Both the position numbers and the translations under genes were made by a program. Positions 45,186 through 49,946 of a stretch of 64,000 nucleotides of DNA are shown here, one piece after another (the first letter of the stretch is position 1; the number at the start of each line of letters is the position of its first letter). The notes under the pieces were generated by a model that had not been told where the DNA came from, did no database searches, and saw only the letters and a program-made list of their open reading frames with translations. The stretch comes from Ganoderma boninense (lineage: Eukaryota; Basidiomycota; Agaricomycetes; Polyporales; Polyporaceae): assembly GCA_002900995.3 (NCBI GenBank), contig CM035305.1, forward strand, positions 2,278,467 to 2,342,466, given 5' to 3'.

Positions 45186-47028
45186 TTATTCCGGTACAGT
45201 CGGATGGTTGAAGGGTAGGGATGAGGACGGTGGGGCTGGAACCGAGCTCTGGCTACGGGGAACCGCAGCGGGGGCGCTAGGTCGGGGTGGCTCCATCGGG
45301 ACAAATAAGAATTTCTGAGGACGAGGCGCCACGGCGCTCTCGCGGACCTGTGGAACCTGAGGGACATCTGCTACCGCTTTACCCGCATCTATGCATGTCC
45401 GACAATATCCTGGTAGAATCGGCCTCAGAGGGCATGCATGCAAGAAGCTCGCAAAGCACTCACTTCCTCCCATCATCAACGGGACGTCCGTCTGGCCACA
45501 TGCGTGGCATGCAATCGGGGTCGGTGGCAGAGATGGTTTCGTCTTGAGGGACTGTCGTCGTTTCACCGGTGCTGACTTCACCGGTGCAGGGAACGGCGCA
45601 TCGGATACGATGAGAGTAGGCTTTCGAGAGACCGACTTCCGTTTTGCCCGGTTACTGTCCGCTCCTGGAGGTTTGATAGACTTCATCGTGTATGGGGGCG
45701 CAACAGCCTGAGGCCAAGGGTCAGAAAAGGGAGCAACATCTGATCGGAATGGACGCACGTTTTGAACCTCGGTCAACAGTTCGCCCTCCGGAAGACGATG
45801 TTGCAGATAAGATTGAGGGGCGCTCGCCTTCACCTGTGGTTATAGTCAAATAGTTACTCGGGAAGGTATGCCAAGCGGGAGCTCACCATTTCTACAAGCT
45901 TCGCCTTGCTTTCTTCCATCTTTTGCGAGCCCCCAGCCCATGCCAGTAACAATTCCCACAAGGATTGTGGCATCCTTGAGAAACGGAAGCTCACTACCTC
46001 TGCAGTATGTGTCTCGGGAGCCTGTTCGCTAGATATGTCCGTGTGCGGACTGGAGGATGTGACAGTCGTTGTGATGACCGCATCAGCATACCTCGACCAG
46101 ACGCCCTCAGCAATGCCCACTCGCTCGCAGAAAACATCTCCTCGAGGTAGTATCCATTTGTCGGACGGCCTCTCGTGAAACTCGAGTATAATGTCAAAGG
46201 GTTTCGGCGAAACAGGCCTGAACGGAGGTGCCACAGCCAGACTGGGAGTCGAAGGAATATTTGAGGCTTCAAGCTCCGGGATACCTTCCAGTTGACGCAC
46301 CAGAACGCCGAGCCTCTTAACCTGTTCAGCAGTCGCAGTGCGGTTGATGACCGCACTGAGCAAATTGGCGAGGATGGGGTCTGTCTGTGCGGCGGTTGCT
46401 ACCCTGGAGGAAAGAGCCGGGGTCACATAAGATGACGATGAGCTTGAGGGCGAAGATTGGGACGCCTGTGGATAAGTTGGTGCTACAGAGTGTGAGGGGA
46501 GCGGGGATGTTTGTGTAGCTGTAGGCGTCTTCATTGAATATATGTCTTTTGAAGAGCTAGCAACATACGTTGAGCCTCAGCGCCGCTATGCTGGTCCGCA
46601 GATGGCAGGTAGTGAACTTCGTATACTGCAGTACCGGAGAATATATGCGGCCCAATACGCAAGTCGTACTTCCCATGAGCTTTGATGGTATGGGGAGGAG
46701 GCGTGATTTCCGCGGCTTTGCCTCGAGTCTTGGTAGAGAATTTTGGAAACATCGAGGTAAGCCATTTATTCCGTGCTGTATAAAGGTCAGGGGGGGGCAG
46801 ACAAGGGCATGAAGCGAAGGAGACTCACACTGCCTCAGAGACTGCAACAGGACGAGGCTATATGAGATAACCCAAGCAGGGACAGACCTGAGCTATGTAC
46901 ACAGTTGCAATTCGAGAGACTGACCTTTCCGCGACGCTTCTGAAGTGCAGACCATCTGGAGGCGGACTGTGTTCTTCTAACTCCCATCCAGGCTGGGGGC
47001 CAGTGGGCAAGTCTACTGAGCGTTGCAT
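45186..47028 (-). CDS. Hypothetical protein with C-terminal C-x2-C-x13-C-x2-C zinc finger
   Basis: The start at 47028 gives MQRSVDLPTGPQPGWELEEH, then small exons with VYIAQSLRQS and RNKWLTSMFPKFSTKTRGKA, followed by HTIKAHGKYDLRIGPHIFSG and TAVYEVHYLPSADQ. The central exon (about 45900-46520) has VATAAQTDPILANLLSAVIN, AEQVKRLGVLVRQLEGIP, PFDIILEFHERPSDKWILPR and SLWELLLAWAGGSQKMEE. The C-terminal exons carry a basic stretch and ACHACGQTDVPLMMGG / RYCRTC, a GATA-like treble-clef candidate split by an intron, and end in NHPTVPE. The composition suggests a nuclear, possibly chromatin-associated protein. I do not recognise a named family. About five introns. Its promoter faces BDP1 with a MITE in between. 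Confidence 0.75.
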
Positions 47029-47128: not shown

Positions 47129-47131
47129 TAA
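47129..47131. repeat. Target-site duplication TAA, left copy
   Basis: TAA directly abuts the left inverted repeat of the MITE and matches the TAA after its right end (47594-47596). Three-base TWA/TAA duplications are the PIF/Harbinger signature. Confidence 0.8.
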
Positions 47132-47593
47132 GGGTCAGTTCGGGTACCAGGTTCTGAGCCGGAAACCGGTGGAAACTGGTTTCTGCCTCCGATCTTCCGA
47201 GAGGGCGCTTACGTGACTGATCTGTGACACAATTATGATACCGTGACCCGTCACTACGGACCGACGCGGTCCGCGCCCAATCCACCTCTTTGCTGAGTTC
47301 ACTGTACTTGCTCTCCCCCAGACGCCTACGCCATTTTAAACTTCATACATAATCTTCTAGCCACATATCACGCGTCAAAATGCCTTTAAAAAGATGTTTC
47401 GCATATGTGAGAGCCGACGGAAGGCGAGAGGACGACATTCCCTCATGAGCGCGTAGGCAGAAGGATCCAAGCGCCGTGACTACCAGACAAGGTAAGGTGA
47501 CCTTAGGCGCCCCCAAGTGACAGCTCGGAAGATCCGAGGCAGAAACCAGTTTCCACCGGTTTCTGCCCCGGAACCTGGTACCCGAACTGACCC
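47132..47593. mobile_element. Non-autonomous PIF/Harbinger-like MITE, 462 bp
   Basis: Terminal inverted repeats at 47132-47201 and 47524-47593 are 70 nt long. The outer 22 nt are identical, there is a 27-nt identical inner block, and only about six to eight mismatches overall. Both ends begin GGGTCAGTTCGGGTACCAGG on their own strand. Each arm also contains a shorter near-palindrome (AAACCGGT...ACTGGTTT). TAA flanks both ends. The inside has no transposase ORF, so the element is a MITE mobilised in trans. The GGG start and 3-bp TAA duplication point to PIF/Harbinger (Tourist-like); other superfamilies are less likely. It lies between two divergent genes, 104 bp from one ATG and about 198 bp from the other. 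Confidence 0.9.
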
Positions 47594-47596
47594 TAA
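47594..47596. repeat. Target-site duplication TAA, right copy
   Basis: The right-hand TAA directly follows the CTGACCC end of the MITE, matching the left copy. Confidence 0.8.
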
Positions 47597-47790: not shown

Positions 47791-49946
47791 ATGTCGCAAC
47801 GCGTCCGTGAGTCAATCAATGCCCACCACCTTTTCACTCGTCCTCCTAAAGTAATCCACAGAGAAGGGTAGCACCGTCTTCCGACCAGTAGCACGGCCAC
47901 GAGCCCGTCCTGCTGCAGAGTCCCGTCAGTCTTCAGTTCTTCCTGAGGCTGCCGCCCCAGGCCCCAGTCGCTCGCAAGACAATGTCGTTCAACAAGTTGC
48001 TCCTATGCCCCCGCCGTCCGTCGTTTATCCCAGACCACCGGTCGAGCCCAATCATTCCCATCCCGCGACCCCCGCCTTGCAAGATGGTATCTCATATTCG
48101 AGAGAAACCTTGACCCCACAACCATTCTCTACCTCAGCCCACACGTCGAGCGTGACTGTGGCTTCGTCTGCGGTCCGCAATTCCTCTCGAATGCCCCCTA
48201 CCGTTGGTTCCACACAACACCCCTCCGGCCACAGTGCTCTTCCAGACCCCCTCCCAATGACCCATGCTCCTCCTGCTCCTCCTCCCAGGAGTACCGTTCC
48301 TTCTGCGCCGCAAACGGTCCCCCCATTGCATCGTCTTCTTGAACATAACTCTAGTTTGTTTGATGACTACCGTGCCATGCCCCCACCTCTGCCAAACCAT
48401 CTAGCTGCCGTTCATTTCCCCGTTGACGGCACCCAGATCGATCCACAACTTATGGGCATTGTGGGACTTGGGCCGCCGGGCGTGCCGTATGCTAGCCACA
48501 CACTGGATAACAGACCAATGTCCCCTGAAAATGCCCCCGTCACGAAGAACCCGAGGTCTAGACGGTCCAGACGAAGGCGATCCGAAGTGGAAGCTTCCGG
48601 TGCAGAAGCTGCTTCACGTGAGTGCTCTGTCTATCACCCTCATTCAAGTTTGCGTTGAACGTTAATTTTGAAGAGCAGCCGGCGAAGATGGGTCCGCCGG
48701 CCCATCGAAGAGGCGACGTTCGAGAAAGAAGGACGCTGAGGGAAATGCCGACGTGACCGAACCTCCAACGAAGAAACGGAAGCTCTCCAGCTCTGAGTCC
48801 AGGTCTGACCGTCCACGAACCCGCCAACCTTCTCTCCCTCCGTTTGACCCAGAGGCCGATCCAGGAGAGGAGCTAGACCCTACCGTCGTGACTATGGCTG
48901 CGCTTTGCGATGACACTGGGAAGGGTCGTGTTAGTACCAGAGCTGCTCAGATCGTGAGCAATCATGCTGCTTGGCGAACATCGAATCGTGAAAAAAGGAC
49001 GCGGATGAAGGCCATTATGGAGGCGAAGAAATACGGGAGGAATCCCGATGAGGAGGAAGAAAGTGCAGCTCGGGCTCTGCCGGACTCCCAGACAGGAGAG
49101 TCCACGGATCCGGTAGATCCCGGATCCACCTCTCGTTCAGGGACCCCTGCCGTGAACGAGGACCCGACGAGACGAGTGGACGGTGGAACAGACGGCGAGA
49201 GTGGCACGGGTGTCGACGGTTTCGACTACACCGAGAATCTTGCTGTGAGCAGATACAACGTGCAAGTTCGCATTGGAGCGAACGGAGAAACCATCATCGA
49301 CGAAGATTCGTTATTCGTCAACCGAGACGAAGAACACCAGACGGAGGATTACGCACATGTTGAGGAGTCCGATTTCACGAAGTTCGTAAATTCGTCGACA
49401 TACAGCAAGAAGGCTCGCGGTTCACGTTGGAGTGCTGAAGAGACAGAGTTGTTCTTTGATGTTCAGTTCTTTTCCCTCTTGCCTACAGCGCTCTCGTTGC
49501 TGAAGTCACCATTAGGCTCTGTCTCAGTTTGGTGAGAACTACGAACTGATCTCATATGTTCTCCCTGGTCGCGACCGTAAGGCGTGCAAGAACAAGTTCA
49601 AATCTGAGGATAAGAAAAATCCCGCACGTATAACGTTCTGTCTCGCCAACCGAAAACCATACGGTATGTTCACCCTGAAGTATGCGGCGGCGGCAAAGTA
49701 ATGGCCTCTTTGTCAGATATCGCGACATTAGCTCGCATGACTGGGAAGGATTTCTCCGGCCCGACCCCAGAAATTCGAGCACCCACTCCGGTGCGCTCCA
49801 CGGAATTGCCAGTCAATGGGCCCACCACCGCATCACCACGATCGACGCGCAAGAAGAGCCGGACACCCAGTGTGCACGATCCCCATGTCGAGATTGTTGG
49901 AGGAATAGACGAGTTCGACAAAGACGACGCCGGCATAGACACTTGA
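47791..49946 (+). CDS. BDP1: TFIIIB subunit BDP1 (B'', SANT/Myb domain)
   Basis: BDP1 completes TFIIIB with TBP and BRF1 at Pol III promoters. Start MSQRV, then an intron, then QKGSTVFRPVARPRARPAAE, the conserved N-terminal motif. A long Pro-rich region follows (about 48000-48600), then basic KKRKLSSSESRSDRPRTRQP. The core begins DPTVVTMAALCDDTGKGRVS, then DFTKFVNSSTYSKKARGSRW, SAEETELFFDALSQFGENYE (SANT; one intron removed), LISYVLPGRDRKACKNKFKS and EDKKNPARITFCLANRKPY. The end is DKDDAGIDT, with a stop at 49944-49946. The core order (KARGSRW, tryptophan of the SANT helix, R-x-x-x-x-x-NKFK) is diagnostic. Introns: 47807 to about 47860, about 48619-48677, about 49462-49516 and about 49663-49720. 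Its promoter contains the MITE. Confidence 0.94.

What the first reader, a model, noticed from the sequence alone, without database searches (positions are those of the whole stretch)
47129..47596. PIF/Harbinger-like MITE in a divergent promoter
A 462 bp element has 70-nt near-perfect inverted repeats, a 5'-GGGTCAGTTC terminus on both strands, a TAA target duplication and no transposase. It lies between the zinc-finger hypothetical (ATG 47028, -) and BDP1 (ATG 47791, +), so it now supplies much of the promoter DNA of both genes, including an essential Pol III factor. The high similarity of the two arms suggests recent movement, and each arm also contains a smaller internal palindrome.
Basis: partly seen in the sequence, partly recalled or inferred. 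Interest (0 to 1): 0.75.

Follow-up and report, generated by a model that had tools for sequence, protein, structure and literature searches.

The report
Short Harbinger transposon between two genes
A 462-base, non-coding relative of a known family of cut-and-paste transposons sits in the short stretch between two oppositely oriented genes of a bracket fungus, one of them a core transcription factor; the element is real, but of an ordinary kind.

Summary
Confirmed. Window 47132-47593 is a 462-bp element without a recognisable gene; its 70-nt inverted ends match at 65 positions and TAA flanks it. The same genome holds three more short copies (one split) and two long copies with the same ends. 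The 3114-bp copy on C9 encodes a DDE_Tnp_4 transposase and a Myb/SANT protein, the PIF/Harbinger pair. All six copies have 3-bp duplications. The C8 copy interrupts a Gypsy element: 9 of 20 sampled relatives align across the site without insert, the four closest with a single TAA. The window copy lies 103 bp from one start codon and 197 bp from the predicted BDP1 start, filling 61% of the spacer. With four short copies it is MITE-like in anatomy, not in number. Effects on expression were not testable. The host looks like a Ganoderma; PIF/Harbinger elements and MITEs are already reported there.

The parts
47129..47131 (.). target site duplication TAA, left
47132..47201 (+). left terminal inverted repeat, 70 nt (65/70 identical to the right one)
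47153..47192 (.). inner imperfect palindrome of the left arm (14 of 18 pairs)
47132..47229 (+). 98 bp shared with one end of the long copies (92.9% with C9)
47230..47456 (+). interior found in the four short copies and, for a part of it, in the C17 fragment; not found in the two long copies
47457..47593 (+). 137 bp shared with the other end of the long copies (87.7% with C9)
47524..47593 (-). right terminal inverted repeat, 70 nt
47533..47572 (.). inner imperfect palindrome of the right arm (16 of 18 pairs)
47594..47596 (.). target site duplication TAA, right
45186..47028 (-). flanking gene (exons joined by eye), conserved in Polyporales and beyond, with a CxxC...CxxC motif (by eye; no Pfam match for three of its open pieces); start codon at 47028 matches homologues
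47791..49946 (+). flanking gene BDP1 (TFIIIB B''), SANT domain at about 49419-49664 across an intron; both ends of the gene read by eye

Best explanation
The feature is a short non-autonomous DNA transposon of the PIF/Harbinger superfamily. Shown here: it has the same ends as a 3.1-kb copy in the same genome that encodes a DDE_Tnp_4 transposase and a Myb/SANT protein; copies are flanked by 3-bp duplications; a sister copy interrupts a retrotransposon whose closest sampled siblings keep the unoccupied site with a single TAA. Inferred: the Myb/SANT protein and the transposase of the long copy recognised the shared ends (the inner palindrome of each arm being a candidate binding site) and moved the short element in trans by cut and paste into a TAA between the two divergent genes. 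It now makes up 462 of the 762 bp between the two start codons. Whether that changes expression of either gene is unknown; the likeliest case is that it is tolerated and has little effect.
For: Ends and duplication. Six copies in the genome. Three-base duplications in 6 of 6 copies: TAA in C2, C8 and C9, TTA in both C7 copies, CTA in C4. Long copy C9: DDE_Tnp_4 E 1.8e-19, Plant_tran E 6.2e-6, no stop in the DDE domain, Myb_DNA-bind_3 E 9e-11 after splicing by eye. One search scored 1709 candidates and found 1113 proteins at E <= 0.001 for the transposase; of the 120 listed, those that carry an organism name are from basidiomycetes. Empty site: 9 of 20 regions align ungapped over 449-451 nt across the joined C8 flanks; in 4 of these 9 a single TAA stands at the site, in the 5 more distant ones the site is also empty but reads TGA.
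Against: Only four short copies, so no amplification of the usual MITE kind. The interior (227 bp) was not found in either long copy, so it is no simple deletion derivative of those. No empty allele of the window locus itself: the flanks occur once in the assembly. No evidence of current activity. The terminal word alone is no evidence: TWAGGGTCAGTTC with one mismatch allowed gave 69 matches against 129 for the reversed control; of its 9 exact matches 8 are ends of these six elements and one (C7 1873551) was not followed up.
Confidence: 0.96

Rival explanations
1. It belongs to another superfamily (for example hAT, Kolobok or Tc1/mariner) and only resembles PIF/Harbinger.
For: Short elements are easily misassigned from ends alone; the terminal word CAAGGGTCAGTTC also occurs on opposite strands 3.3 kb apart on C2, which could be another element type.
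Against: The C9 long copy with the same ends encodes DDE_Tnp_4 and Myb/SANT; duplications are 3 bp, TAA or TTA in 5 of 6 copies.
Confidence: 0.02
2. It is a conserved regulatory inverted repeat of the divergent promoter and not a mobile element.
For: It lies between two conserved genes and its arms could form a hairpin.
Against: The same sequence occurs at other places, one of them inside a retrotransposon gene; in the 3-kb search around the window copy only the element itself, not its flanks, matched elsewhere.
Confidence: 0.01
3. The insertion has altered the shared promoter and now controls BDP1, its neighbour or both (functional co-option).
For: Ends 103 bp and 197 bp from the two start codons and makes up 61% of the spacer; fewest private changes of the four short copies (2 of 458 columns).
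Against: No expression data; few changes fit youth as well as constraint; no Rfam match and no empty allele to compare with.
Confidence: 0.12

Closest known systems
PIF/Harbinger superfamily with Tourist-like MITEs (mPing and its Ping/Pong partners in rice; PMC2836001, start of the abstract and passages seen)
   Same: 3-bp TAA/TTA duplication, two separate proteins (DDE transposase and Myb-like ORF1) in the long partner, short non-coding form with the same ends
   Different: 70-nt ends with an inner palindrome; four short copies only; interior not found in the two long copies; fungal host
PIF/Harbinger transposases and MITEs reported in Ganoderma sinense (PMC4457147, passages seen)
   Same: same superfamily and probably the same host genus
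   Different: the passages give superfamily-level statements; this family's ends and this insertion are not in the passages seen
Second Harbinger family of this genome, ends GGGCCAGTTCGGCGCGGGTC (C1, 3040 bp, with DDE_Tnp_4; C10, 715 bp, short form)
   Same: first 12 bases with one difference, TTA duplication, a palindrome inside the ends (9 of 10 pairs), a long and a short form
   Different: no BLAST match between the window element and the C1 element; its short and long forms are 97-98% alike at the ends

Membership tests
PIF/Harbinger superfamily | terminal inverted repeats | tested here: met
   65 of 70 identical
PIF/Harbinger superfamily | 3-bp target duplication, usually TWA | tested here: met
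   6 of 6 copies have a 3-bp repeat, 5 of them TAA/TTA and one CTA; single TAA in the 4 closest of 9 empty sites
PIF/Harbinger superfamily | partner element with DDE_Tnp_4-type transposase and the same ends | tested here: met
   C9 2625049-2628162
PIF/Harbinger superfamily | second gene with a Myb/SANT domain | tested here: met
   PF12776 E 9e-11 on exons joined by eye; below the curated cut-off on the first exon alone
PIF/Harbinger superfamily | precise excision | not testable with these tools
   needs an assay or strain comparison
MITE | short, non-coding, inverted ends, moved in trans | tested here: met
   462 bp, no Pfam match; ends shared with the long copy; movement in trans is inferred
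MITE | high copy number of uniform copies | tested here: not met
   four short copies, one of them split, in searches that give lower bounds; hence filed as a short non-autonomous PIF/Harbinger element, MITE-like

The most novel reading that the evidence does not exclude
The insertion has turned the spacer into a transposon-derived bidirectional promoter that ties BDP1, and through it Pol III output, to the neighbouring gene, with the inner palindromes serving as sites for a Myb/SANT protein.
Probability: 0.06. Interest if true: 0.5.

Novelty: new member of a known kind. Interest (0 to 1): 0.2.

Why it matters
It documents a small PIF/Harbinger family with matching long and short forms and a clean empty site in a Ganoderma-like genome, and gives a natural case for asking whether a transposon may occupy most of the promoter region of a core Pol III factor without harm. 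As a kind of element it is ordinary.

Tried and rejected
Arm similarity as a clock: rejected, since left and right arms differ at mostly the same places in the other short copies. Empty site at the window locus: the flanks occur once only in the assembly. Empty site at the split C7 copy: a diverged copy of its right flank exists, but similarity begins 525 bp from the element; nothing in the first piece tried. C17 match (85 bp, 83.5%): no match to the element's ends in the 2 kb fetched, treated as a fragment. A first alignment had two copies in the wrong orientation; the oriented one is, where the C8 and C4 rows carry one extra flank base at each end (such columns drop out of the counts). One search compared the wrong file and says nothing; it was redone. 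A bacterial promoter scan does not apply to a fungus; Rfam gave no match. Papers: searches on PIF/Harbinger, MITE and fungi, on Harbinger binding (47) and on Ganoderma with Harbinger (71). Judged by the titles and abstract starts listed (15 of 258, 10 of 273, all listed in the others), none is about this family. Passages only were seen of PMC2836001, PMC4457147 and PMC4289320. PMC3342255 (G. lucidum genome), which mentions Harbinger once, was not opened.

Full report
What is there. The element spans 47132-47593 (462 bp) with TAA on either side. Its 70-nt ends agree at 65 positions; the first 10 bases are identical, and 24 of the first 25. In 30 mononucleotide shuffles of the surrounding 1200 bases the best 70-nt inverted match was 42, so this is not chance. 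It has no recognisable gene: two ATG-started frames of at least 30 aa touch it, both running in from outside, and four stop-to-stop frames crossing it gave no Pfam match. Each arm carries an inner imperfect palindrome: in the 12 arms of the six elements the same place pairs at 10 to 16 of 18 positions. For 11 of the 12 no one of 2000 mononucleotide shuffles of the block reaches the observed number; for the twelfth, in the long C7 copy, 11 of 2000 do. The place was chosen from the window's right arm, and the arms are related, so these are not 12 independent tests.

Where. The window lies on contig C2 of a 55.6-Mb assembly of 74 contigs. The best homologues of the minus-strand neighbour are from Ganoderma: G. 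adspersum 79% and G. sinense 74% over the whole query, G. leucocontextum 76% over three quarters of it. I therefore take the host to be a Ganoderma or a close relative; no call names it.

Other copies. The whole element finds 22 matches in its genome. They resolve into four short copies: the window (C2), C8 (97.2%), C4 (92.0%) and one on C7 split in two (94.5 and 96.3%; identities); two long copies, C9 2625049-2628162 (3114 bp) and C7 1736967-1753588; and one 85-bp fragment on C17. The search with one 79-bp end finds 12 places, that is both ends of these six elements; the tool calls its counts lower bounds. Each of the six has a 3-bp direct repeat at its ends: TAA (C2, C8, C9), TTA (both C7), CTA (C4).

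The partner. The C9 copy has, on one strand, two open stretches that together look like a HARBI1-type transposase: DDE_Tnp_4 at E 1.8e-19 and Plant_tran at E 6.2e-6 in one (only a weak HTH match, below cut-off, in the other), no stop inside the DDE domain, closest named relatives 64-65% identical in Trametes sanguinea and T. cinnabarina. On the other strand it has a protein that, with introns removed by eye, matches Myb_DNA-bind_3 at E 9e-11. Published work on mPing describes these two proteins, both needed, with 3-bp duplications and short elements moved in trans (PMC2836001, passages). The short copies share 98 bp at one end and 137 bp at the other with the long copies; the 227 bp between were found in the short copies and partly in the C17 fragment, not in the long copies. 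So the short form is not a simple deletion of either long copy seen here.

Mobility. The C8 copy lies inside the pol gene of a Gypsy retrotransposon (frames identified by eye). I joined its flanks with one TAA and compared them with 20 stretches upstream of integrase domains of this genome, chosen by eye from the 150 hits listed to sample different score classes. 9 of 20 align without a gap over 449-451 nt, 4 at 90.6-92.7% and 5 at 78.6-80.6%; 11 of 20 gave no match. A 21st sequence in that comparison, the Gypsy element in L042, matched in short pieces elsewhere but not across the site. At the site the four closest read CCTTAA-TGAAC, one TAA; the other five read TTGA-CAAAC, also without insert. 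This shows a clean insertion with a 3-bp duplication for a sister copy. It is not a test of the window copy, whose flanks are found once only.

Age. The arms of the window copy differ at five places. At four of them (positions 24, 26, 28 and 30) the left arms of the other three short copies carry the window's left-type base in 12 of 12 cases, and their right arms the right-type base in 10 of 12 (counted by eye), so most of the difference was in the founder. A better measure is changes private to one copy: among 458 comparable columns of the four short copies, window 2, C8 5, C7 10, C4 23. The window copy is thus the least changed; the C4 copy is rich in C-to-T and G-to-A changes. No absolute date follows without a rate.

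Promoter. Of 49 homologues of the minus-strand gene found I printed the starts of 16: 15 begin with a form of MQRSVHLPTGP (P0140 only loosely), the sixteenth, P0127, has another start. This supports the start codon at 47028. The element ends 103 bp from it and 197 bp from the predicted BDP1 start, and fills 462 of 762 bp. BDP1 is secure by its SANT domain; its first codon was read by eye. Whether transcription of either gene starts in the element or depends on it could not be tested.

Verdict. A real, ordinary non-autonomous PIF/Harbinger element, MITE-like in anatomy but low in number, well placed to matter for two genes but with no evidence that it does. PIF/Harbinger transposases and MITEs are already reported for Ganoderma sinense (PMC4457147, passages).

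Noticed in passing
C7 of the own genome: 3078299-3078492 and 3287576-3287852 (L012, L013, L039, L042): One short copy of this family is split into complementary halves (3 bp overlap, same strand, TTA on both outer sides) about 209 kb apart. The inner ends look like Helitron ends: about 93 bases of one and 38 of the other recur as four pairs 1.24-1.29 kb apart on C13, besides unpaired matches, and a Helitron_like_N/PIF1 gene lies at the 5' end. Six 3-kb samples of the 209 kb hold gene-like frames (of 6 scanned, a carboxylesterase and a KDZ-associated CxC2 frame matched Pfam); only 2 of the 150 scored integrase hits fall in it. Of 3 samples searched for second copies, two have one at 91% and 88% about 4 kb and 60 kb outside the halves, the third only at 72% on C1; the right flank too has a 90% copy inside. 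A giant Helitron-bounded insertion, a tandem duplication, or two haplotypes joined in assembly: unresolved. In Pleurotus, HELPO1 Helitrons are 1.5-13.7 kb and HELPO2 3.9-10 kb (PMC4289320, passages).
   Followed up: partly
C7 of the own genome 1736967-1753588 (L010, L011): A long Harbinger copy (93-95% to C9) carries a 13.5-kb insertion with an 8-bp duplication GGATAGGT and 18-bp inverted ends TAAGGCTGAACGTAGGTC, hAT-like in anatomy; two of its open frames gave no Pfam match.
   Followed up: partly
C1 1735549-1738588 (L040) and C10 697252-697966 (L041): A second Harbinger family with related first bases (GGGCCAGTTCGG), TTA duplications, a long form with DDE_Tnp_4 and a short form, and again a palindrome inside the ends.
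   Followed up: partly
C10, C11, C12, C16 of the own genome: The word TAAGGGTCAGGTC recurs on the same strand at spacings of 14.2-14.4 kb, one pair on each of the four contigs, which suggests a large repeat that bears this word twice.
   Followed up: no
C2 1992262-1995527 and C7 1873551 of the own genome: CAAGGGTCAGTTC on opposite strands 3.3 kb apart on C2 without a matching 3-bp direct repeat, possibly another element type with a similar terminus; and one lone exact TAAGGGTCAGTTC on C7 outside the six elements.
   Followed up: no
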